DNA of 64,000 bases from Nocardioides jiangsuensis (GTDB lineage Bacteria > Actinomycetota > Actinomycetes > Propionibacteriales > Nocardioidaceae): positions 186,001-250,000 of the forward strand of contig NZ_JAIEZQ010000001.1 in assembly GCF_019679455.1 (NCBI RefSeq), read 5' to 3'. The notes beneath the pieces are model-generated. The model made no database searches, was not told the DNA's origin, and saw nothing but the letters and a program-made list of their open reading frames with translations. This document shows positions 14,312 to 43,269 of the stretch, in pieces; position 1 is the stretch's first letter, and every line of letters begins with the position of its first letter. The translations under genes were made by a program, and so were the position numbers.

Positions 14312-14328
14312 TCGTCCCCGGGGGATGA
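14312..14328 (+). promoter_or_regulatory. GGATGA inverted-repeat box upstream of glutamate decarboxylase
   Basis: TCGTCC, 5 nt, GGATGA. The right half extends to GGGGATGAGG, which is the full MalT-box consensus. It ends 60 nt before the decarboxylase ATG. Same 17-bp design as boxes at 28039, 31042, 37499, 40492 and 41711. Confidence 0.6.
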
Positions 14329-27395: not shown

Positions 27396-27956
27396 TCAGG
27401 GCGCGACCACCCCCGGGTGCCCCATGCCCGCCGGGGAGACACGGACCCGCCCGACGAGCATCATCGCGATGCCGTCGAAGAGGGTCTCGATCCCGAGGAT
27501 CACACCCAGCAGCACGTACGACGCGCTGACCAGGTTGAACAGCACCACCAGGCCAAGGAGGGTGGAGACCACGCCGGCGATGAGCAGCGGCCAGCGGTAC
27601 TCCGGCTCCTGCGCCGAGGCGGCCAGACGGACGATGCCGGTGGCCAGGAACAACGCCCCGGCGACCAGGGTCAGGGTCACCGCCGCGACCTCGGGGTTGC
27701 GCAGGCACACGCCACCGAGCACGAGCAGCAGGCCGCCGCTGAGCGCCGAGACCCAGAAGCCGCCCTTGCCGATGCGGAAGAACGCACCGACCAGGCCGAC
27801 CACGCCGACGAGCAGCAGGATCCAGCCGAGGAACAGCACCGACACCGCGGTGGCCCACACGGCGTGGCCCAGGATCACCAGGCCGCCGATGACGAGCAGC
27901 GCGCCCAGGACGAGGTCCCAGCCGGTACGGCGCCGCTCCAGAAGTGACGAAGACAT
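27396..27956 (-). CDS. HdeD-like DUF308 membrane protein
   Basis: 186-residue integral membrane protein with six predicted helices arranged as two DUF308 repeats, the family of E. coli HdeD, which supports acid resistance at high cell density. Motifs WILLLVGVVGLVGAFF and LLLGVILGIETLFDGIAMM are typical. A GGATGA inverted-repeat box lies at 28039-28055, about 83 nt upstream of the ATG. The gene follows the large LuxR regulator in the same direction with 127 bp between, and can be transcribed alone. Function in actinobacteria is not established. Confidence 0.88.
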   Translation of the reverse strand: MSSSLLERRRTGWDLVLGALLVIGGLVILGHAVWATAVSVLFLGWILLLVGVVGLVGAFFRIGKGGFWVSALSGGLLLVLGGVCLRNPEVAAVTLTLVAGALFLATGIVRLAASAQEPEYRWPLLIAGVVSTLLGLVVLFNLVSASYVLLGVILGIETLFDGIAMMLVGRVRVSPAGMGHPGVVAP

Positions 27957-28038: not shown

Positions 28039-28055
28039 TCATCCGGTCGGGATGG
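28039..28055 (-). promoter_or_regulatory. GGATGA inverted-repeat box upstream of HdeD-like gene
   Basis: Read on the plus strand: TCATCC, 5 nt, GGATGG (one mismatch to a perfect palindrome). A further CCATCCC at 28062-28068 makes a second inverted repeat with GGGATGG, which could also act as terminator of the regulator gene. Confidence 0.55.
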
Positions 28056-28083: not shown

Positions 28084-30834
28084 TCAGGCTGCGTCCCGCG
28101 GGGGGAGGAGCTGCAGCTCCCACGCCCGTCGTACCGCCTGGTTGCGCCGGGTCACGCCGAGCTTGCGCAGGATGCTGCGGACGTGGCTGCGGACCGTGTT
28201 CACCGAGACGAACATGGTCGCCGCGATCTCGTCGGTGGTGAGCAGCTGCGCCAGGTAGCCGAGCACCTCCTGCTCCTTCGCGGTCAGCGGGGGCACCGCC
28301 GGCGCGGGCCCCGCCCGGCTCCCGCCGGTGACGGGTGAGCGCTGGGCTCCGACGAGGGCGGGTTCGTCGGCGGTCGGGGCGGGCTCGGTGGTGCGCAGCC
28401 AGCCGTGCCGTGTCGCCGCGGCGCCGTGGCCGAGCAGCTCGCGGACCTCCTCGGGCGCCTCGAGGAAGGGGCGGCGGAGCCGCTCGGGCGCAGCGGTCTC
28501 GAGGGCACGGGCGAGGAACGCCTCGGCCCGGGCCCGGTCGGGCCGGCGCGCGGCCCGGCGGGTCAGCACCAGCCACCCAGCCACCTGGGTCGCCAGCGGC
28601 TCCCCCGCCAGGGCGCCCGCCGGGCGCCGCGTCTGCTCCGGCACCGGTCCGGGGAGCGTGGCCGGTTCGAGCAGGAGCTCGGCCTCCACCGCGCCGTCGG
28701 CATCCGTGGTCCGCAGCGTCTCGACGGCCTCCTGGGGACGGTGCTCCTGCACCAGGCACGCCGCCTCCTCGAGCACGAGGGAACGCGCGACCCGGCCGCT
28801 CACCGCGGTGGACCGGTCGGGGGCGGACACGGCCCGGATTCCGGCCCGTGCCAGCTCGGGCCTCCCCTGGGCGCGCAGCAGGCGCGCGCGGAGCAGGGTG
28901 CCGAGGGCGCCGAGCAGCCGGGCGTCGTACGGCGAGCACGCGGCGGGCTCCGAGAGCGCCAGCAGGTCCTGGACCGCACCGAGGTCGTACTGGTCCATGC
29001 GGGCCCAGGCCAGCGCCAGCACGGCGGCCCTCGAGGAGTACGACGGGCCACTTCCGGTGTCGTCCTGGGCACCCCACTCGGCCGCTATCTCGGCGGCCTT
29101 CCGGAGCCTGCCCGTCATGGCCTCCACGAGCGCGGCCATGCCCTGCAGCTGCGCCGCGGCCTCCTCGAGCCGGGCCGTCTCGGCCAGTCGTACGCCCCGG
29201 GTCAGCGCCGCCAGTGCCGCGCCGAGGTCGCCGCGTTGCAGCAGCACCCTCCCCCGGCAGCCGGCCAGCACGATCTCGAGCTCAGGCCTGGCGACCCGGT
29301 CATCCGCGGGCGCCAGCGACAGGGCGTTCTCCGCGCGGAGCACCGCGTCCAGGCCGGCGTCGAGGTCGGGATCCATGCTGCCCGCGACCGCCTCGAGCAC
29401 GAGCACCGTGAGCGCGAGCGCGGGCGAGCGGGGTGACTCCTCCCGCGACGGCAGGCTCCGCACCTCGACGAGAGCCGCCTCGGCCAGGTCGAGGTCCACG
29501 TCGGCGACCGCGAGAGCGGCCCGGGTGACGGCGGCGTCCGCTCCCTCGACGTCGTCGGGAAGTCCTCCGAGCAGGTCGTGCAGGACCGCGCGACGCGGTC
29601 CGATCAGCAGCCGGCCGACACCGAGCCCCTCGACGAAGCATCGGGTGGCGATCGGCCACGCCTGCGCGGACGCGGCGGGACGGATCGCGACGAGCGGCCG
29701 GCCGTCACGCGCGAGCCACTCGGCCGCCGTGCGGTGCAGCTCGGGCACGAGCCCCGGCCACTCGTACTCGACCTGGCTGCGCAGGAACTCACGGAACAGC
29801 GACTGGTAGCGGTAGTGGCCGGGGCGGCCGGGCACCTGCTCGATGAACGAGTTGCCGTGCGCCATGAACTGCAGGGTGCGGGGGTCGCAGTGCCGTCCGG
29901 TGAGAGCCGTGACCAGTCCCGGGTCCAGCTCGTCCACGAGACAGGTGCGCAGCAGCAGCTCCCGCGTCTCGGGTGGCTGCTTGGCCAGCACCTCGCTCAT
30001 CAGGAACGCCGCGACGTTGCCGGTGTCCCCGCGGAACTCCTGGGCCGCCCGGTGCGGGTCGGCGCGACCCGCCAGCGCCATCGCCGCGAACTTGAGACCG
30101 GCGGGCCAGCCGCCCGTGCGGGCATGCAGCGCGGCGATGTCGACGGGCTCGAGGTCGAGACCGGCGCGGCGCATGAGCACGGCGACCTCGGAGAGCGTGA
30201 AGGAGAGGTCGTCGGCGCGGATCTCGGTGACCTCGTCCCGGAGCCGGTACCGGTGCAGCGGCAGCGGCGGGTCGGTCCGCGTGAGGAAGACCAGGCGGAG
30301 CCTGCCGGCGCATGCGGCGAGGAGCCGGTTCAGCCCGTCGCCGACGACCGGCGGGAGCGGGAGCTCTCCGCAGTCGAGGACGAGGACCACGGGCCGCTCG
30401 TGCTCCTCGATCCGCCCGGCCAGCCGCGTCAGCATGCGCCCGTCGACCACCTCCGACGTGCCGGAAGGGTGCACGTCGGTGACGTCGACGCCGCGCCGCC
30501 GCAGACCTTCCAGCACCGAGCCCCAGAACTCCGCGGGCGCCGTGTCGCCGTCGTCCATTGTCAGGTACAGCGCCGTACCGACCCTGTCGAGGCTGCTGCC
30601 CAGGGTGGACACGAGCACGGTTTTCCCGTAGCCGGCCGGGGCGCTCACCAGGGTCAGCGGCCGGCGCACGCCGTCACGCAGGACGTCGAGGAGACGGCGC
30701 CGGACGAGGGCGTCCGGGGGCGTCGGCAGCGCGCCGAACTTGGCGCTCACGCGGGGTTCGGCCGGCCGCGTCGGCGTCGGAGACGGGCTCGCCGCCGCCC
30801 CGGAGTCGGATGTGGTGCCGGTGGTGGGTGGCAT
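28084..30834 (-). CDS. large ATP-binding LuxR family regulator (MalT-like, LAL)
   Basis: 916-residue STAND-type transcription activator. P-loop APAGYGKT (around residues 65-72), Walker B VVLVLDCGEL, a long central helical repeat region of TPR type, and a C-terminal LuxR helix-turn-helix (LTAKEQEVLGYLAQLLTTDEI, then VNTVRSHVRSILRKLGV) in the last 70 residues. MalT-type proteins bind ATP plus an inducer and activate promoters with GGATGA-core boxes; such boxes occur upstream of several neighbouring genes. The start is the ATG at 30834, six nt after TGGAGG; ATG at 30864 and GTG/ATG at 30891 are alternatives. Inducer unknown. Confidence 0.93.
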   Translation of the reverse strand: MPPTTGTTSDSGAAASPSPTPTRPAEPRVSAKFGALPTPPDALVRRRLLDVLRDGVRRPLTLVSAPAGYGKTVLVSTLGSSLDRVGTALYLTMDDGDTAPAEFWGSVLEGLRRRGVDVTDVHPSGTSEVVDGRMLTRLAGRIEEHERPVVLVLDCGELPLPPVVGDGLNRLLAACAGRLRLVFLTRTDPPLPLHRYRLRDEVTEIRADDLSFTLSEVAVLMRRAGLDLEPVDIAALHARTGGWPAGLKFAAMALAGRADPHRAAQEFRGDTGNVAAFLMSEVLAKQPPETRELLLRTCLVDELDPGLVTALTGRHCDPRTLQFMAHGNSFIEQVPGRPGHYRYQSLFREFLRSQVEYEWPGLVPELHRTAAEWLARDGRPLVAIRPAASAQAWPIATRCFVEGLGVGRLLIGPRRAVLHDLLGGLPDDVEGADAAVTRAALAVADVDLDLAEAALVEVRSLPSREESPRSPALALTVLVLEAVAGSMDPDLDAGLDAVLRAENALSLAPADDRVARPELEIVLAGCRGRVLLQRGDLGAALAALTRGVRLAETARLEEAAAQLQGMAALVEAMTGRLRKAAEIAAEWGAQDDTGSGPSYSSRAAVLALAWARMDQYDLGAVQDLLALSEPAACSPYDARLLGALGTLLRARLLRAQGRPELARAGIRAVSAPDRSTAVSGRVARSLVLEEAACLVQEHRPQEAVETLRTTDADGAVEAELLLEPATLPGPVPEQTRRPAGALAGEPLATQVAGWLVLTRRAARRPDRARAEAFLARALETAAPERLRRPFLEAPEEVRELLGHGAAATRHGWLRTTEPAPTADEPALVGAQRSPVTGGSRAGPAPAVPPLTAKEQEVLGYLAQLLTTDEIAATMFVSVNTVRSHVRSILRKLGVTRRNQAVRRAWELQLLPPRDAA

Positions 30835-31116
30835 AGGTCCTCCAGGCGACAGGGGGGTCGCCATCGGTTCCCCCAGCCTCCAGCGGAGCACGAGTAAAGG
30901 AGGGTCTGAAGGGGCGAAGGTCCCGTCGGCGGTGGCCCTTACGGAACTCGACGGGGCAGGAAGTCGGGGCAGGTCCGGTTCGCGCGGTTCGACCCGCGGA
31001 GTCGGTGACGGCCGCGGTTCGGTTCGGACGGCGGCACCGGTTCACCCCGCAGGGATGACGCCCTGACGGCCGTGGTTTGCGAACGTCACAGGGACCGGTC
31101 GAGAACGGAGTGCCTC
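30835..31116. other. divergent intergenic region with GGTTCG repeats
   Basis: 282 bp between the LuxR regulator and the small-protein operon. Four GGTTCG hexamers (30978, 30986, 31016, 31021) and a GGTTCA (31039) precede the GGATGA box at 31042-31058. No ORF or RNA recognised. Promoters for both directions must lie here. Confidence 0.45.
31042..31058 (+). promoter_or_regulatory. GGATGA inverted-repeat box upstream of small-protein operon
   Basis: TCACCC, 5 nt, GGATGA; it ends 59 nt before the ATG at 31117. Located in the region shared with the divergent LuxR regulator, so autoregulation is also possible. Confidence 0.6.
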
Positions 31117-31380
31117 ATGGTCCAGACGATGTACGAGGTCCGCGTCGCGGGCGCCGTACCCGAGAAGGACCTCCAGGACATGGGCGCGGTCACGCTGCCG
31201 CCGGAGCAGGTCAACACCGTGCTGTACGGCATCTCGGACCAGGCCGCGCTCTACGGGCTGCTGGCCCGGCTGCGGGCGCTGGGGATCGAGGTGGTCGAGG
31301 TACGCCGCGTCCCGACCATGACCGAGACCGAGGCCGACACACCGGAGGAGCCCGGTGGCAAGGAGGCAGTCGATGACTAG
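31117..31380 (+). CDS. small protein 1 of DUF6325/SHOCT operon
   Basis: 87 residues, soluble. An alpha/beta domain of about 65 residues (MYEVRVAGAVPEKDLQDMG, VNTVLYGISDQAALYGLLARLRALGIEVVEVRR) resembles the next protein in general layout (VTLPGQFGPAFLASF...LQARGLVILGIRR) and ends in an acidic tail. I know no function; the form suggests a small regulatory or ligand-binding module. First gene of a four-gene operon; the stop overlaps the next start by 8 bases. Confidence 0.75.
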   Translation: MVQTMYEVRVAGAVPEKDLQDMGAVTLPPEQVNTVLYGISDQAALYGLLARLRALGIEVVEVRRVPTMTETEADTPEEPGGKEAVDD

Positions 31381-31723
31381 TACCGCAGCCGTCCTCGCGG
31401 GGTCCTACCAGGTGACCCTCCCGGGCCAGTTCGGGCCCGCCTTCCTGGCCAGCTTCGCCGCGATGGGCGTCGGCCACGCGGCGACCTCCAGCGTCTTCCT
31501 CCTGCCGGAGCGTGCAGGACAGGGACTCGCGGACATCGCGGCGATGCTGCAGGCCCGCGGACTCGTGATCCTCGGGATCCGCCGCGTCGTCGAGCCCGAC
31601 GCCGGTCCGTTCACCGGGCCTCCCGCGACGACGTTGCACCGGTTGACCCCGCCGCGCACGGCGGGCACGGCCACCAGACGTGAGGCACATCGTCCTCGCA
31701 CGAAGGAGAGTGAAGAGCGATGA
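31373..31723 (+). CDS. small protein 2 of DUF6325/SHOCT operon
   Basis: 116 residues. N-terminal 70 residues have the same alternating pattern as the preceding protein (YQVTLPGQFGPAFLASFAAMG ... GLVILGIRRVVEPD), followed by a basic, proline-rich, probably disordered tail. ATG at 31373 sits behind AAGGAGG within the end of the previous gene; the frame extends six codons upstream. Its end overlaps the DUF6325 start. Function unknown. Confidence 0.72.
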   Translation: MTSTAAVLAGSYQVTLPGQFGPAFLASFAAMGVGHAATSSVFLLPERAGQGLADIAAMLQARGLVILGIRRVVEPDAGPFTGPPATTLHRLTPPRTAGTATRREAHRPRTKESEER

Positions 31724-32175
31724 CAGAGGTTGACGTCCACGGCCCCGTGGACTTCGTGCTCATCGAGTTCAGCGGGGACCGGCTCACCGGTCGGGCCGCC
31801 CAGGAGCTGGTGAGCCTCGTCGAGCGCGGCATCGTCGCCGTGTACGACGTCACGGTGGTCGGCAAGACCACGGCGGGTGAGGTCTACGCGGCCGACCTCG
31901 CGTCCGGTGAGGTAGACGTCGGCGACTTCGCCGATCTCGCCTGGGCCCGGACGGGCCTGCTCGGTGACGAGGACGTGCGCGAGGCGGCCGGCGCGATGGA
32001 GCCCGGCAAGCTCGCGGTCCTGATCGTCTACGAGAACACCTGGGCCATCCCCTTCGTCGCCGCGGCCCGGGAGTCGGGTGGCGAGCTGATCGCGGGAGCC
32101 CGGATCCCGGCGCAGGACGTGATGGACGCGCTGGAGGCTCTCGAGGCGACGGAACCCCTGCAAGCGACGACCTGA
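31720..32175 (+). CDS. DUF6325/DUF1269-like protein
   Basis: 151 residues. The pattern GPVDFVLIEFSGDRLTGRAAQELVSLVERG with IVAVYDVTVVGKT matches actinobacterial DUF6325 proteins, distant relatives of DUF1269. No catalytic motif or membrane helix. In this operon it is followed at 10 nt by a SHOCT protein, the usual pairing for the family. Family function is unknown; the upstream GGATGA box suggests stress control. Confidence 0.82.
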   Translation: MTEVDVHGPVDFVLIEFSGDRLTGRAAQELVSLVERGIVAVYDVTVVGKTTAGEVYAADLASGEVDVGDFADLAWARTGLLGDEDVREAAGAMEPGKLAVLIVYENTWAIPFVAAARESGGELIAGARIPAQDVMDALEALEATEPLQATT

Positions 32176-32185
32176 GGAGACGGGC

Positions 32186-32488
32186 ATGCCAGGACTAGTG
32201 CGCGGAGTCGCGAGGACTGCCGCGATCGCCGGGACGGCCTCCGCCGTCAGCGGGCGCGTGCAGCGCCGTCAGGCCGCCAAGTTCGCCGAGAAGGACGCGC
32301 AGACCGCCGCCCAGCGACAGCAGGCGTACCAGCAGCAGGTCGCTCCTCCCGAGGTGCCGACCCAGCGGGGAGCCACGTCTGGTGGGGACACCCTGCAGCA
32401 GCTCAAGACCCTGGGCGAGCTCAGGGCACAGGGTGTGCTCACCGAGGAGGAGTTCGCCACCCAGAAGGCGAAGATCCTCGGAGGCTGA
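32186..32488 (+). CDS. SHOCT domain protein
   Basis: 100 residues. Positively charged, alanine-rich N-terminus (VRGVARTAAIAGTASAVSG), a glutamine-rich linker, and a C-terminal SHOCT domain (QLKTLGELRAQGVLTEEEFATQKAKILG). SHOCT is a short oligomerisation-type helix pair. Last gene of the operon. Confidence 0.87.
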   Translation: MPGLVRGVARTAAIAGTASAVSGRVQRRQAAKFAEKDAQTAAQRQQAYQQQVAPPEVPTQRGATSGGDTLQQLKTLGELRAQGVLTEEEFATQKAKILGG

Positions 32489-33421: not shown

Positions 33422-35362
33422 TCAGTCGGCCCCGACCGCGGCCGTCCTGGGCGCGGCGGCCTCGGCCGGCTCCTGGCCGGGGGTGCGCTGGGTGGGGATC
33501 GAGACCCGTGGCAGCGGCGCCGCCGCCGGCGCACGCAGGTCCAGCTGCGAGTCCAGCGTGATCGCCGCGTCGATCAGCGCCAGGTGCGTGAAGGCCTGCG
33601 GGAAGTTGCCGATCTGCTCCCCCGTGAGCGCAATCTCCTCGGAGTAGAGCCCGAGGTGGTTGGCGTAGGTCAGCATCTTCTCGAAGACCAGCCGCGCGTC
33701 GTCCACACGACCGGCCCGCGCCAGCGCGTCGACGTAGGTGAAGGTGCACAGCGAGAACGTCCCCTCCGAGCCCCGCAGGCCGTCCGGCGACGCCTCAGGG
33801 TCGTAGCGGTAGACGAGGCTGTCGGTGACGAGCTCCTCGTCCATCGCCCGCAGCGTGGACGCCCACATCGGGTCGTGCGGCGACACGAACCCGACGCTCG
33901 ACATCCGCAGCAGGGAGGAGTCCAGCACCCGGTCGTCGTACTGCTGCACGAACGCCTGTCGCTCGGAGTTCCAGCCTCGCGCCATGATCTGGTCGTAGAT
34001 CGCGTCGCGCTGGGCGACCCACCGCTCCAGCGGGGCGGGGCGCCCGTGCGCGGTGGCGAGCCGGACGCCGCGGTCCAGCGCGACCCAGCTCATGAGCCGG
34101 CCGTAGGTGAAGTCCCTCCGACCGCCGCGGGTCTCCCAGATCCCCTCCTCGGGCTGGTCCCAGTTGTCGGTGAGCCAGTCCAACAGCTCACAGACCGACA
34201 GCCAGCCCTGGTGTCCCCCCTGGATCCCGCGGCGGTCGGCGTAGTAGATGCTGTCCATCGCCTCGCCGTAGATGTCGAGCTGGAGCTGACCCGCGGCACC
34301 GTTCCCGATCCGCACGGGGCTCGACCCCCGGTAGCCCTCCCAGTGCTCGAGGACCTCCTCGCCGAGGTCGGGCGACCCGTCCACCCGGTACATGATGTTG
34401 AGCGGTCCCTCGGCCTCGCTCACCTGGGCGTGCACGCGGGCGCGCAGCCACCCGGCGAACGCGGCCGCCTCCTCGGTGAAGCCCATGCCCAGCAGCGAGT
34501 AGACCGAGAACGACGCGTCCCTGACCCACGTGTAGCGGTAGTCCCAGTTGCGCTCACCGCCCACCTGCTCGGGCAGCCCGGCCGTCGGAGCCGCGACCAG
34601 ACCGCCCGTGGGCGCGTAGGTCATCAGCTTCAGCGTGATCGCCGAGCGGCCCAGCATCTCCCGCCACCGTCCGGTGTACGTCGACCGGCTCAGCCAGCTC
34701 TTCCAGAAGGCGGCCGTGTCGTCGAAGAGCTGCTGGACCTCGGCCACCCGGATGTCACGCGGCGGCCCCACGGAGTCGGTCTCGAGCACCAGGCCGCGCT
34801 GCTGTCCCGCGCGCAGGGTGAGGGTGGCGTGCACGGCTCCCTCCCCGTCCGCCTCGGGGCGTACGAGGCGCTCGTCACCCGGCTCGCGCACGATGTGGAC
34901 CGTGCACGAGGTCCGCGGGCCCTGGAAGACCATGCCACTCTCGGTGAGCTGCGTCTCGTGGCGCTCGCGCCCGTAGTCGAACCGGGGCGCGATGTCGAGG
35001 TCGAACGTCATCTGCCCGCGGACACAGCGCGCCAGCCGGACGAGCCGGTGCCGCGTCGTGGCCGTGGTCGCCGAGGCGATCGGCATGAAGTCCATGACCT
35101 CCCCCACGCCGCCCTCGGTCATGAAGCGGGTGATCAGGATGGCCGTGTCCGGGAAGTAGAGCTGCTTGCTCGTGACCTCCTGGTCGACCGGCCGGAAGCG
35201 GAGGTGACCGCCACGCCGGTGGTCCAGCAGCGCGGCGAACATGCTCGGAGAGTCGAAGCGTGGCGCGCAGAACCAGTCGATCGACCCGTCCGTGCTCACC
35301 AGCGCGCTGGTCTGGAGGTCGCCGATCAGGCCATGGTCGGCGATCAGGGGGTAGTCAGCCAT
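33422..35362 (-). CDS. glycoside hydrolase family 15 protein (glucoamylase/trehalase-like)
   Basis: 646-residue cytoplasmic GH15 enzyme of the bacterial trehalase/glucan glucohydrolase branch. The N-terminal beta-sandwich begins PLIADHGLIGDLQTSALVS with IDWFCAPRFDSPS; the (alpha/alpha)6 barrel holds the catalytic acid in GIWETRGG and the base in LTGEQIGNFPQAFTH. Both glutamates are present. Substrate (trehalose or alpha-glucan) is not resolvable. The ATG at 35362 overlaps the preceding gene by 8 bases. A C-terminal Ala/Pro-rich tail of about 40 residues is dispensable-looking. Confidence 0.92.
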   Translation of the reverse strand: MADYPLIADHGLIGDLQTSALVSTDGSIDWFCAPRFDSPSMFAALLDHRRGGHLRFRPVDQEVTSKQLYFPDTAILITRFMTEGGVGEVMDFMPIASATTATTRHRLVRLARCVRGQMTFDLDIAPRFDYGRERHETQLTESGMVFQGPRTSCTVHIVREPGDERLVRPEADGEGAVHATLTLRAGQQRGLVLETDSVGPPRDIRVAEVQQLFDDTAAFWKSWLSRSTYTGRWREMLGRSAITLKLMTYAPTGGLVAAPTAGLPEQVGGERNWDYRYTWVRDASFSVYSLLGMGFTEEAAAFAGWLRARVHAQVSEAEGPLNIMYRVDGSPDLGEEVLEHWEGYRGSSPVRIGNGAAGQLQLDIYGEAMDSIYYADRRGIQGGHQGWLSVCELLDWLTDNWDQPEEGIWETRGGRRDFTYGRLMSWVALDRGVRLATAHGRPAPLERWVAQRDAIYDQIMARGWNSERQAFVQQYDDRVLDSSLLRMSSVGFVSPHDPMWASTLRAMDEELVTDSLVYRYDPEASPDGLRGSEGTFSLCTFTYVDALARAGRVDDARLVFEKMLTYANHLGLYSEEIALTGEQIGNFPQAFTHLALIDAAITLDSQLDLRAPAAAPLPRVSIPTQRTPGQEPAEAAAPRTAAVGAD

Positions 35363-36910: not shown

Positions 36911-37438
36911 TCAGGCGTTCGTCCCCTGACCGGTGTCACGGTTGCGGATCTCGCTCCCGTGGACCGTGACCGCCCAGATCACCAGGATGTCGACCGCGAT
37001 CATCAGGGCCGACCAGAGCGGGTAGGCCGCGAGGAAGGCAGCGTTGACCAGGGCGCTGCCGAAGGCGAACACGACAGCGACCACGCGGGCCCACATCTGC
37101 CCGGCGAGAAGGCCGACACCGGCGCCCGCGACGAGGGCACCGACCACGATGTGCGCCCAGCCCCAGGCGGTGTAGTCGACGTGGATGGTCAGGCCGTTCT
37201 GCCCGACCAGGTAGTAGTCCTCCTGGACGAGCGCGATGATGCCCTGGAACGCGTGGAACATTCCGAGCAGCACCATCATCATCCCGGCGAACGCGACCCA
37301 GCCGACCCAGCCGGTCTGCGGCGATTCGGCGGGAGCGGCCATGGTCGGGGTCGACGGGGTGGTGCCGGCAGTGGGCGCCGTGGTCGATGACGTAGGCGAC
37401 GCCTGCTGGGGGATGGATGCGCCTTTGGTTTCCGACAT
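36911..37438 (-). CDS. DUF7144-like membrane protein
   Basis: 175 residues. A Thr/Pro/Ala-rich cytoplasmic N-terminus of about 40 residues is followed by four membrane helices containing GMFHAFQGIIALVQEDYYLV and YTAWGWAHIVVGALVAGAGVGLL, the pattern of the DUF7144 family. Leads the operon 37438-32542 (this gene, loop membrane protein, GH15, membrane protein). RBS region GATGAGGAG. GGATGA box 61 nt upstream. Confidence 0.83.
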   Translation of the reverse strand: MSETKGASIPQQASPTSSTTAPTAGTTPSTPTMAAPAESPQTGWVGWVAFAGMMMVLLGMFHAFQGIIALVQEDYYLVGQNGLTIHVDYTAWGWAHIVVGALVAGAGVGLLAGQMWARVVAVVFAFGSALVNAAFLAAYPLWSALMIAVDILVIWAVTVHGSEIRNRDTGQGTNA

Positions 37439-37498: not shown

Positions 37499-37515
37499 TC
37501 ATCCGCAGGGGGTGA
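37499..37515 (-). promoter_or_regulatory. GGATGA inverted-repeat box upstream of DUF7144-GH15 operon
   Basis: Plus-strand reading: TCATCC, 5 nt, GGGTGA; on the gene's strand TCACCC-N5-GGATGA, identical in both half-sites to the box at 31042. It ends 60 nt before the ATG at 37438. Confidence 0.6.
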
Positions 37516-40045: not shown

Positions 40046-40423
40046 TCAGACCAGAGCCTTGTCCTTGAGCCGCTCGAACTCGGTCTGGTTGATGACGCCG
40101 GCGTCGAGCATCGCCCGGGCCTGCGCGATCTGGTCGGCCGGCGTGGCCTTGCCCGCGACCTCGCGAATGTAGGCGTCCTGCTGCTGCTTCACCGCCTGCG
40201 CGGTCTGCGCGGACCGCTCGGACATGCCCTTGCCCCGGACGATCAGGTAGACGAGCGAGGTGATCAGCGGCAGGAAGATCAGGGCGACGATCCAGACCGC
40301 CTTCATGACTCCGGACTCCTCCCGGTCACGGAAGAGGTCGGTGATGATCGAGAACATCACCATGAGGTACGCCACGAAGGCGAAGGTGATGAAGATGAAC
40401 CACACAATGTCCCAGAACGACAT
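40046..40423 (-). CDS. SHOCT domain membrane protein (PLDc_N-like)
   Basis: 125 residues. Two membrane helices (IVWFIFITFAFVAYLMVMFS and AVWIVALIFLPLITSLVYLI), the second in a PLDc_N-like context ending LIVRGKGM, then a coiled linker and a C-terminal SHOCT domain (ADQIAQARAMLDAGVINQTEFERLKDKAL). ATG at 40423 follows AAAGGA. GGATGA box 69 nt upstream. Likely co-transcribed with the BrkB gene. Confidence 0.88.
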   Translation of the reverse strand: MSFWDIVWFIFITFAFVAYLMVMFSIITDLFRDREESGVMKAVWIVALIFLPLITSLVYLIVRGKGMSERSAQTAQAVKQQQDAYIREVAGKATPADQIAQARAMLDAGVINQTEFERLKDKALV

Positions 40424-40491: not shown

Positions 40492-40508
40492 TCATCTCCA
40501 GCGGATGA
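40492..40508 (-). promoter_or_regulatory. GGATGA inverted-repeat box upstream of SHOCT/BrkB unit
   Basis: Plus-strand reading: TCATCT, 5 nt, GGATGA (one mismatch). 69 nt before the ATG at 40423 and 18 nt past the upstream lipoprotein stop. Confidence 0.55.
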
Positions 40509-41710: not shown

Positions 41711-41727
41711 TCATCCACCCCGGACGA
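41711..41727. promoter_or_regulatory. GGATGA inverted-repeat box between divergent GAP and DUF2252 genes
   Basis: TCATCC, 5 nt, GGACGA; 83 nt from the GAP ATG and 94 nt from the DUF2252 ATG. A second, weaker copy (TCACCC ... GGGGATGC, 41770-41789) lies closer to DUF2252 and breaks the 5-nt spacing. Confidence 0.55.
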
Positions 41728-41820
41728 GTGCGCGGCGCCACGCGTCACGGGCCGGGCCTGCACGCCGGTTCACCCCGGACGGGGGATGCGCCCCCTCCCC
41801 CGGACCAGTTGGGTGAGGCC

Positions 41821-43269
41821 ATGATGACCGAGAAAGTCACCCACCCCTCGGCTGCCGAGACGCGCGCGCGTCTGGGCGCCCAGATGCGCACCCGCGTCCC
41901 CGCCGAGACCCACGCGGAGCTCAACACGACCGGTCGCCCCGACCCGGTCCAGGTGCTGGCCGACGAGACCCCGTCGCGCCTCCAGGAGCTGGTGCCGCTG
42001 CGCCACAGCCGCATGCTCACCTCGCCGTTCGCCTTCTTCCGGGGCGGCGCCGGGGTGATGGCGGGCGACCTGGCCCGCCAGCCCAACACCGGTCTCACCG
42101 CCCAGCTGTGCGGCGACGCGCACCTGTCGAACTTCGGCATGTTCGCCTCCCCCGAACGGCACCTCCTCTTCGACGTCAACGACTTCGACGAGACCCTGCC
42201 CGGCCCGTGGGAGTGGGACGTCAAGCGGCTGGCGGCGAGCCTGGCCGTCGCCGCCCGGCAGAACGGATACGCGGACAAGCAGGCCCGCAAGATCGTGCTC
42301 GCCGCCGTACGTCGCTACCAGCTCGCGATGCACGCCTTCGCCGAGCTCGGGAACCTCGCCGTCTGGTACGCACGGGTCGACGTGGACGAGCTGCAGGCCG
42401 AGCTCGGTGCGGACCTCTCGAAGACGATGTCCAAGCGGCTCGACCGCACGGTCAAGAAGGCCCGGGGCCGGGACCACCTCCGCTCCCTGAACAAGCTGAC
42501 CGCGGTCGTCGACGGCCGGCGCCGCTTCGTCGCGGACCCCCCGTTGCTCGTTCCCCTCTCCCAGGTCGTGACGGACCGGTCGGAGGAGGAGGCGGCCGCC
42601 CAGGTGAAGGGCATGGTCCGGCAGTACTCCGGCACGCTCCCGCCCGGCCCGCGCGAGCTGGTCCGCTCCTACGACTTCGTGGACATGGCCCGCAAGGTGG
42701 TCGGGGTCGGCAGTGTGGGCACCCGGTGCTGGGTGATCCTGCTGATCGGACGCGACGAGAACGACCCCCTCTTCCTCCAGGTCAAGGAGGCCGGGGCCTC
42801 GGCGCTGGCGCCGTTCCTGCCCCGGGCGAACTCGGGGAGCCAGGGCGTGCGGGTGGTGACCGGCCAGCGGATCATGCAGGCCACCAGCGACATCTTCCTC
42901 GGCTCCCAGACCGTCGTCGGGATCGACGGCGTCAGCCGGGACTTCTACCTCCGCCAGCTCCAGGACTGGAAGGGCTCCCTGCCGGTCGAGGCGATGATCC
43001 CGAAGGGGATGCGGCTGTACGGCGAGCTCTGCGCCTGGACCCTGGCCCGGGCCCACGCCCGTTCGGGGGACCGGATCGCGATCGCCTCCTACCTCGGCCA
43101 CGACGACGCCTTCGCCCACGCCGTCGAGGCCTTCGCGCAGGCCTATGCGGACCTCAACGAGCAGGACTACGCGCGGTTCGCCGCCGTCGCCCGCCGCGAC
43201 CTCTTCCTCGGCCGTCCACACCCCGACGCACCGTCCGACGCGACGCCGGAGCCGCTGACCCAGTCCTGA
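41821..43269 (+). CDS. DUF2252 family protein 1
   Basis: 482-residue cytoplasmic protein with a kinase-like (aminoglycoside phosphotransferase) signature: SPFAFFRGGAGVMAGDLA, CGDAHLSNFGMF and LLFDVNDFDETLPGPWEWD. The HxxN and DVNDFD motifs correspond to the catalytic loop and metal site of APH-like kinases; activity of DUF2252 is unproven. ATG-ATG at 41821; the long frame before it is antisense. A paralogue lies at 57160-58476 with low identity. Confidence 0.88.
   Translation: MMTEKVTHPSAAETRARLGAQMRTRVPAETHAELNTTGRPDPVQVLADETPSRLQELVPLRHSRMLTSPFAFFRGGAGVMAGDLARQPNTGLTAQLCGDAHLSNFGMFASPERHLLFDVNDFDETLPGPWEWDVKRLAASLAVAARQNGYADKQARKIVLAAVRRYQLAMHAFAELGNLAVWYARVDVDELQAELGADLSKTMSKRLDRTVKKARGRDHLRSLNKLTAVVDGRRRFVADPPLLVPLSQVVTDRSEEEAAAQVKGMVRQYSGTLPPGPRELVRSYDFVDMARKVVGVGSVGTRCWVILLIGRDENDPLFLQVKEAGASALAPFLPRANSGSQGVRVVTGQRIMQATSDIFLGSQTVVGIDGVSRDFYLRQLQDWKGSLPVEAMIPKGMRLYGELCAWTLARAHARSGDRIAIASYLGHDDAFAHAVEAFAQAYADLNEQDYARFAAVARRDLFLGRPHPDAPSDATPEPLTQS

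What the first reader, a model, noticed from the sequence alone, without database searches (positions are those of the whole stretch)
31117..32488. Four-gene operon of small unknown proteins ending in DUF6325 and SHOCT
The first two products look like related small alpha/beta domains (VAGAV/VTLPG start, then ALGIEVVEVRR / ARGLVILGIRR end) with different tails, followed by DUF6325 and SHOCT. Overlapping starts show tight coupling. The set faces the MalT-like regulator and has the best-formed box. It may be an undescribed stress complex.
Basis: partly seen in the sequence, partly recalled or inferred. Interest (0 to 1): 0.55.

Follow-up and report, generated by a model that had tools for sequence, protein, structure and literature searches.

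The report
MalT-box operon with regulator-linked small proteins
A four-gene soil-bacterium operon sits behind the DNA box of a known sugar-type gene switch (MalT), and its first two small proteins belong to an unnamed protein family that travels with such switches across many bacterial groups, so they may be helper parts of the switch itself.

Summary
The four genes are real and tightly packed. Products A (31117-31380) and B (31373-31723) are distant paralogues: profile-profile probability 97.5%, E 6.6e-12, 40 column shuffles at most 10%. C is DUF6325 and D carries SHOCT. No Pfam or NCBIfam model covers A/B in 81 diverse members.

The promoter holds a perfect TCAYCC-N5-GGRTGA palindrome at 31042-31058, invariant in Kribbella. 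The same box precedes other genes of this membrane-protein island. It equals the MalT motif TCATCC-5nt-GGATGA of Actinoplanes, where deletion and overexpression of malT were tested (PMC7567727). The box and regulon type are therefore known; the operon is a new instance in another family.

New here: the A/B family lies beside MalT-like LuxR regulators in 65 of 80 named loci from several phyla. A and regulator distances correlate strongly (Mantel r 0.86, 58 pairs), also among paralogues of one genome. C-D is a separate, wider pair (36 of 40 C loci). Best reading: A/B are partner subunits or feedback modulators of the MalT-like regulator, and C-D are envelope-island effectors. A 'stress complex' of all four is not supported. 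A's fold is predicted only at moderate confidence.

The parts
31042..31058 (.). MalT-type box TCACCCCGCAGGGATGA, perfect match to TCAYCC-N5-GGRTGA; presumed activator site of the A-B-C-D promoter
   Evidence: same motif as in PMC7567727
31076..31086 (+). conserved TTTGCGAACGT element downstream of the box, where the -10 region would fall if transcription starts about 34 nt after the box
   Evidence: footprint alignment with Kribbella; start of transcription inferred from PMC7567727, not mapped here
31117..31380 (+). gene A, 87 aa, unnamed small-domain family (YEIRV..DQAALHGLL..LG..VVEVRR), predicted beta-alpha-(beta)-beta-alpha-beta
31373..31723 (+). gene B, 116 aa, divergent paralogue of A with a longer basic/Pro-rich tail
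31720..32175 (+). gene C, 151 aa, DUF6325 (PF19850)
32186..32488 (+). gene D, 100 aa, conserved small-residue-rich N-terminal segment plus C-terminal SHOCT domain
28084..30861 (-). divergent MalT-like LuxR (large ATP-binding) regulator; start may be 30891
   Evidence: GerE E 1.8e-14, AAA_22 2.2e-5, TPR_MalT 9.1e-10 (the last two below curated cut-off)
28039..28055 (.). box, 1 mismatch, 83 nt before the DUF308/HdeD-like gene 27396-27956(-)
37499..37515 (.). perfect box before the DUF7144 gene 36911-37438(-)
40492..40508 (.). box, 1 mismatch, 69 nt before the PLDc_N-SHOCT gene 40046-40423(-)
41711..41786 (.). two boxes (41711-41727, 41770-41786), 1 mismatch each, before the DUF2252 gene 41821-43269(+)

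Best explanation
The operon is a target of a MalT-type LuxR activator, most simply the one encoded divergently. The activator is presumed to bind the palindrome TCACCC-N5-GGATGA overlapping the -35 region and to switch on A-B-C-D together with other, mostly membrane-protein, genes of the island. A and B are two paralogous small proteins of an unnamed family that is the near-constant companion of MalT-like regulators across phyla. The most likely role is as partner subunits or feedback modulators that bind the regulator's ATPase or sensor part and tune it, while C (DUF6325) and D (SHOCT) are downstream envelope-associated effectors. Shown here by computation: genes, A-B homology, box and its recurrence, A-regulator linkage and co-divergence, C-D linkage. 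Taken from experiment in Actinoplanes: MalT activates genes behind this box. Inferred: that this regulator binds this box, any physical contact of A/B with it, the sign of the effect, and the effector role of C-D.
For: Box: 7 copies in the window against 0.64 expected, invariant before A in Kribbella. 130 of 133 copies in 23 actinobacterial island loci lie before gene starts (2.9-3.5 per 10 kb against 0.16 in 20 control regions). It is the MalT motif of PMC7567727. A/B and regulator: MalT-like LuxR within 3 kb in 65 of 80 loci, 46 upstream on the same strand; regulator coverage about 0.4 at 1-3 kb against 0.01-0.04 at 7-10 kb. Conversely, 9 of 13 regulators with E <= 1e-60 in 97 genomes have an A within 3 kb (searches compared). 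Distance matrices of 58 A-regulator pairs: Mantel r 0.863, 2000 permutations at most 0.197; r 0.99 among the four pairs of each of two genomes, 0.66 in a third with three pairs. The regulator is the most constant neighbour while the others vary: DUF6325 in 12 of 80 loci, a zinc-dehydrogenase-like gene within 1.5 kb in 14 of 80.
Against: 15 of 80 A loci show no MalT-like gene within 3 kb; four of them (L186, L201, L208, L214) have about 10 kb on both sides and none at all. Outside Actinobacteria the box is absent (4 sites in 450 kb, below the control rate), so A/B is not tied to this box. Four of 13 close regulators lack A. The window's own genome has five other weak TPR_MalT loci, so another regulator might use the box. 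The Mantel test does not remove shared ancestry; only the within-genome sets do, and they are small; nearest neighbours agreed in only 24 of 58. A's model is of moderate confidence (pLDDT 73.5, pTM 0.53) and its PDB matches are those of a common arrangement. No ligand site or interface was identified.
Confidence: 0.55

Rival explanations
1. A and B are ordinary effectors of the regulon that stay next to the regulator gene only because the whole island is inherited and transferred as one block; they do not touch the regulator.
For: In Actinobacteria A is itself behind the box, as an effector would be, and many other island genes cluster in the same block. 15 of 80 A loci have no regulator within 3 kb.
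Against: Outside Actinobacteria the rest of the island is absent yet the regulator-A pair stays, regulator mostly directly upstream on the same strand. Neighbours other than the regulator change. A and regulator paralogues of one genome co-diverge.
Confidence: 0.3
2. All four products form one undescribed stress complex.
For: Overlapping genes in the window; A-B-C-D order in 9 of 11 Kribbella loci.
Against: C-D occurs mostly without A/B (A/B within 5.5 kb in 5 of 40 C loci); A-B occurs without C-D (L063, L064, L067), and 68 of the 80 named A loci show no C. Kribbella has a separate box before C. The studied relative of the regulon is sugar-responsive (PMC7567727).
Confidence: 0.08
3. The box is bound by another regulator and the divergent MalT-like gene only happens to lie there.
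For: Five other weak TPR_MalT loci in the genome; 37 sites with at most 1 mismatch genome-wide, 7 in this window.
Against: A MalT-like gene was shown to activate genes behind the same motif in Actinoplanes. Regulator, A and box stay together in all 8 Kribbella loci scanned.
Confidence: 0.1

Closest known systems
[quoted passage not shown] SE50/110, activated by MalT ACSP50_3915 (Droste et al. 2020, PMC7567727)
   Same: MalT-like LuxR gene inside a block of poorly annotated, often membrane-related genes; palindrome TCATCC-5nt-GGATGA before many of them; regulator shown to be the activator there
   Different: I could not see its supplementary gene list (no supplement look-ups allowed), so whether it holds A/B or DUF6325-SHOCT is unknown. 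The parts read name no A/B family and compare Micromonosporaceae only.
MalT of Escherichia coli and its antagonists MalY, Aes and MalK (antagonists recalled)
   Same: Same regulator class; half-site GGATGA equals the MalT core GGA(T/G)GA quoted in PMC7567727; other proteins modulate MalT by binding it
   Different: A/B matches no Pfam family, so none of those antagonists' families; the window genes scanned include no maltose transport or maltase family, only a GH15 enzyme
ACT domains and other ferredoxin-like ligand-binding domains (IlvH, Rel ACT, PstA)
   Same: Predicted beta-alpha-beta-beta-alpha-beta order; among the structural matches
   Different: No significant Foldseek match (none at E <= 0.001), Z at most 8.0, not above a common arrangement; only one of 81 members touches the ACT model, at E 0.086
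DUF6325 (PF19850) and SHOCT (PF09851)
   Same: C and D are members by Pfam cut-off
   Different: No difference seen; the C-D pairing itself is the recurrent context

Membership tests
MalT-type regulon (MRLGR kind) | palindromic box TCATCC-5nt-GGATGA before target genes | tested here: met
   31042-31058 perfect with Y/R allowed at one position of each half; 7 sites against 0.64 expected; conserved in Kribbella
MalT-type regulon (MRLGR kind) | MalT-like LuxR regulator in the block | tested here: met
   28084-30861(-): GerE, AAA, TPR_MalT hits
MalT-type regulon (MRLGR kind) | regulator-dependent, maltose-dependent transcription of the genes | not testable with these tools
   needs expression data in this organism
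MalT/LAL regulators | C-terminal LuxR helix-turn-helix | tested here: met
   PF00196 E 1.8e-14, residues 858-913 of 925
MalT/LAL regulators | N-terminal P-loop ATPase | tested here: inconclusive
   AAA_22 E 2.2e-5 but 25.2 bits against cut-off 27; a Walker-A-like GYGKT is in the sequence
MalT/LAL regulators | MalT-like TPR sensor region | tested here: inconclusive
   PF17874 E 9.1e-10 but 38.8 bits against cut-off 45
DUF6325 | score above Pfam cut-off over the domain | tested here: met
   42.2 bits against 23.4, residues 7-139
SHOCT | C-terminal SHOCT domain above cut-off | tested here: met
   39.9 bits against 27, residues 71-98 of 100
ACT domain | sequence match to the ACT profile | tested here: not met
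   A and B themselves have no ACT hit; 1 of 81 members at E 0.086
ACT domain | beta-alpha-beta-beta-alpha-beta fold | tested here: inconclusive
   model pLDDT 73.5; ACT domains among matches with Z 7 to 8, tied with unrelated rows

The most novel reading that the evidence does not exclude
A/B is an unrecognised, widespread class of trans-acting regulatory subunit of MalT-type STAND transcription activators: a small ferredoxin-like protein, in many Actinobacteria a tandem A-B pair, that binds its cognate regulator and either senses a ligand for it or closes a negative feedback loop, with each regulator paralogue having its own A.
Probability: 0.35. Interest if true: 0.75.

Novelty: new variant of a known kind. 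Interest (0 to 1): 0.55.

Why it matters
MalT-type STAND regulators are abundant, yet what most of them sense is unknown (general knowledge). A small protein family that accompanies them across several phyla, without a Pfam or NCBIfam name, would give a handle on how they are gated and a marker for matching regulators to signals. The finding also extends the MalT box regulon known from Actinoplanes to Kribbella, Nocardioides-type and other Actinobacteria, and names DUF6325-SHOCT as a recurrent module.

Tried and rejected
DosR-type box: GGGGCGAAGGTCCC at 30911 looked like a dormancy-regulon site (motif recalled), but GGGNCNNNNGNCCC occurs 8 times in the window against 10.65 expected; rejected. 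A guessed GAAGGNCC-type repeat was also at chance. The strict 19-mer TTCAYCCCNNNGGGRTGAA with 2 mismatches is near its control in the genome (5 against 3 sites); the shorter half-sites carry the signal (37 against 6).

Structure of C: a good model (pLDDT 85.2), but no informative PDB relative (Foldseek none at E <= 0.001; best Z 3.2). No solved relative by sequence for C at a meaningful E-value (one hit, E 0.29) and none for the A profile. DUF6325 against the DUF1269-like TVWKF proteins of the same islands gives 69.9%, E 4e-5 (the name DUF1269 is recalled, not from a scan): suggestive only, no shuffle control run.

Fusion of A to the regulator: none found in the 80 loci.

Papers: searches for DUF6325 (0 papers), MalT/LuxR/STAND/small protein/hypothetical/Chloroflexi, MalT box, SHOCT domain, MalT/Actinobacteria/palindromic/LuxR, MalT-like/STAND/small protein, ACSP50_3915. 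Of PMC7567727 I read parts 1-5 of 6 (part 6 not read); of PMC11237479 and PMC3581485 passages only; the rest as search listings. No description of the A/B family was seen in these listings and passages; preprints and most subscription papers are not held.

Caveats on counts. The island profiles were built from L056-L075 and the window, so matches there are by construction; L104-L163 were fetched afterwards and took no part in the profiles. L164-L172 and L192 are largely the same Kribbella sites as L056-L066, and the 80 loci are the best 80 of 237 confirmed stretches. Gene starts in these loci come from my own simple caller, not from an annotation. Two of the 52 segments (from L068 and L075) were left out of both profiles. 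One search kept 58 of 77 A/B-regulator pairs (one A per regulator, A-type preferred, regulator hits of 1800 nt or more). Box counts used 23 chosen actinobacterial island loci and 26 chosen non-actinobacterial loci, not all fetched ones. Phylum labels come from record titles, many of metagenome-assembled genomes.

Full report
What is there. C is DUF6325 and D a SHOCT protein, both above Pfam's cut-off; A and B match no family above its cut-off. In the window's own genome A, B and DUF6325 each occur once.

A and B are homologues. Direct BLASTP is weak (E 0.007). An HMM seeded with A and iterated over fetched loci takes in B and B-like proteins (52 segments; 31 used as A-like, 19 as B-like, 2 left out). 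Profile against profile gives 97.5%, E 6.6e-12 over all 63 columns; the reversed profile gives 0.34%, and 40 column shuffles reach at most 10%. B was found in 13 of 196 genomes of the order, the window's included; in all 12 others an A lies directly upstream (coordinates). So the pair is an old tandem duplication kept as a pair.

The family. A was found in 44 of 196 genomes of the order, up to nine matches in one. A scan of named genomes confirmed 237 stretches, of which the best 80 were kept: Kribbella, Nocardioides, Aeromicrobium, Pedococcus, Rubrobacter-type and other Actinobacteria, many Chloroflexi, Paenibacillus isolates, and a few MAGs labelled cyanobacterial, KSB1, acidobacterial, gammaproteobacterial and archaeal. 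None of 81 members has a credible Pfam or NCBIfam family; the best hits are scattered and weak. The AlphaFold model of A (81-row alignment) has pLDDT 73.5 and pTM 0.53, with order beta-alpha-(short beta)-beta-alpha-beta. Foldseek gives nothing at E <= 0.001; YebC, ACT domains of acetohydroxyacid synthase, S6 permutants and PstA come out with Z 7 to 8. I read this as a ferredoxin-like fold, ACT-like at most, with no function implied.

Linkage to MalT-like regulators. Of the 80 loci, 65 have a MalT-like LuxR gene within 3 kb of the query A: 46 upstream on the same strand, 14 upstream divergent, 3 and 2 downstream. Counting any A of a locus: Kribbella 13 of 14, other Actinobacteria 19 of 21, other phyla 34 of 45; among loci with 3.5 kb or more on both sides 13 of 14, 14 of 16 and 17 of 23. 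The share of sequence covered by such regulators is about 0.4 at 1-3 kb from A and 0.01-0.04 at 7-10 kb. In reverse, 13 regulators similar to the window's at E <= 1e-60 occur in 97 genomes; 9 have an A within 3 kb, 4 do not (one search compared). Distances among 58 A's and among their regulators correlate (Mantel r 0.863; 2000 permutations at most 0.197). Shared descent inflates this, but among paralogous pairs of a single genome r is 0.99, 0.99 and 0.66 (4, 4 and 3 pairs). Nearest neighbours agreed in only 24 of 58.

The box. Aligning the region between regulator and A in Kribbella and the window shows an almost invariant TTCACCCCNNNGGGATGA and, downstream, TTTGCGANCGT. In the window TCAYCC-N5-GGRTGA with at most one mismatch occurs 7 times against 0.64 expected; no shuffle of 100 reached 7. 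All 7 lie before gene starts: HdeD-like, A, DUF7144, PLDc_N-SHOCT, DUF2252 (two sites) and a gene pair at 14312. Per 10 kb the box occurs 2.91 times in 8 Kribbella loci, 3.47 in 8 other actinobacterial loci, 3.37 in 7 further ones, 0.16 in 20 control regions (100 kb away in genomes that carry C), and 0.09 in 26 non-actinobacterial A loci; 130 of 133 sites in the first three sets lie before gene starts and one inside a gene. Box to start codon of A is 59-63 nt in the window and 7 of 8 Kribbella loci; the eighth has an earlier called start. In Kribbella C has its own box in all 7 loci of that set that have C. Genome-wide the window's organism has 37 sites, the backward pattern 6.

What is known. 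Droste et al. 2020 (PMC7567727; parts 1-5 of 6 read) describe a 51-gene block in Actinoplanes sp. SE50/110, poorly annotated, transcribed more on maltose than on glucose, with TCATCC-5nt-GGATGA before 17 transcription starts, its 3' end 34.4 nt upstream of the start. Deleting the MalT-like gene lowered 42 of 51 genes, overexpression raised 39, and no maltose gene was affected. They note the similarity to the E. coli MalT core GGA(T/G)GA. My box was derived from the footprint before I read the paper (precede). So the box and its regulator class are already known; this operon is a new instance in Nocardioidaceae (family inferred because contig lengths of G124 and G140 equal those of Aeromicrobium massiliense and Kribbella steppae records). 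By the same spacing, transcription here would start near 31092.

C and D. DUF6325 occurs in 99 of 393 genomes of the class and 41 of 123 genera. Around 40 C genes, mostly one per genus, a D-like SHOCT gene is adjacent in 36, a MalT-like gene lies within 5.5 kb in 9, A/B in 5, and a box within 400 nt upstream in 18; the 20 control regions show only one MFS match at E <= 0.001. C-D is therefore a module of its own, often but not always in the MalT regulon. SHOCT was tested and not supported as an oligomerisation domain (PMC3581485, passages); a later comparative study proposes membrane anchoring by SHOCT-like domains (PMC11237479, passages). As many other box genes of the island are of membrane-protein type (DUF308, DUF7144, PLDc_N, membrane nature recalled), an envelope role for C-D is a reasonable guess, no more.

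Mechanism proposed. A MalT-like activator binds the box and switches on the island including A-B-C-D (class shown in Actinoplanes, inferred here). A/B acts on the regulator. The argument is that the regulator is the most constant neighbour in all groups, while the other neighbours change: DUF6325 in 12 of 80 loci, a zinc-dehydrogenase-like gene within 1.5 kb in 14 of 80, others elsewhere; and that A and regulator paralogues diverge together. In Actinobacteria A is behind the box, which would make a feedback loop. The sign of the effect and any ligand are unknown. I give 0.85 to the operon being a MalT-type target, about 0.5 to A/B being regulator partners, and 0.55 to the statement as a whole, weighing its first part more.

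Verdict. The 'stress complex' reading is replaced by: known box regulon, unnamed regulator-linked protein family, separate DUF6325-SHOCT module.

Noticed in passing
L181:9959-11239, L224:9962-11170, L241:3852-5279, L232:107-805: A domain in one open frame with a zinc-dehydrogenase-like protein (three loci) or a Polyketide_cyc2 domain (one locus): possible fusions, all in metagenome-assembled genomes.
   Followed up: partly
L188, L190, L203, L208, L213, L216, L219, L225, L235, L242 and others: A zinc-dehydrogenase-like (MDR) gene lies within 1.5 kb of A in 14 of 80 loci, 13 of them downstream on the same strand, suggesting a regulator-A-dehydrogenase unit outside Kribbella.
   Followed up: partly
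L118:14784-15281, L106:242-739, L174:9297-9788, L199:4346-4843, L073:12541-13032: DUF1269-like (TVWKF) proteins (name recalled) lie in the same islands, several behind the same box, and resemble DUF6325 by profile comparison (69.9%, E 4e-5; no control run).
   Followed up: partly
window 33422-35362: GH15/trehalase-like gene near the operon, minus strand, no box before it within the criteria used.
   Followed up: no
G000 C1:966386, C2:13322, C2:505318, C2:1421086, C3:539377: Five further perfect boxes in the same genome outside the window, before or near genes of various kinds (L251-L255): possible distant members of the regulon.
   Followed up: partly
window 14312-14328: A one-mismatch box between the divergent long biotin-carboxylase-like gene (name by eye) and a 462-aa gene, 14 kb before the island.
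   Followed up: no
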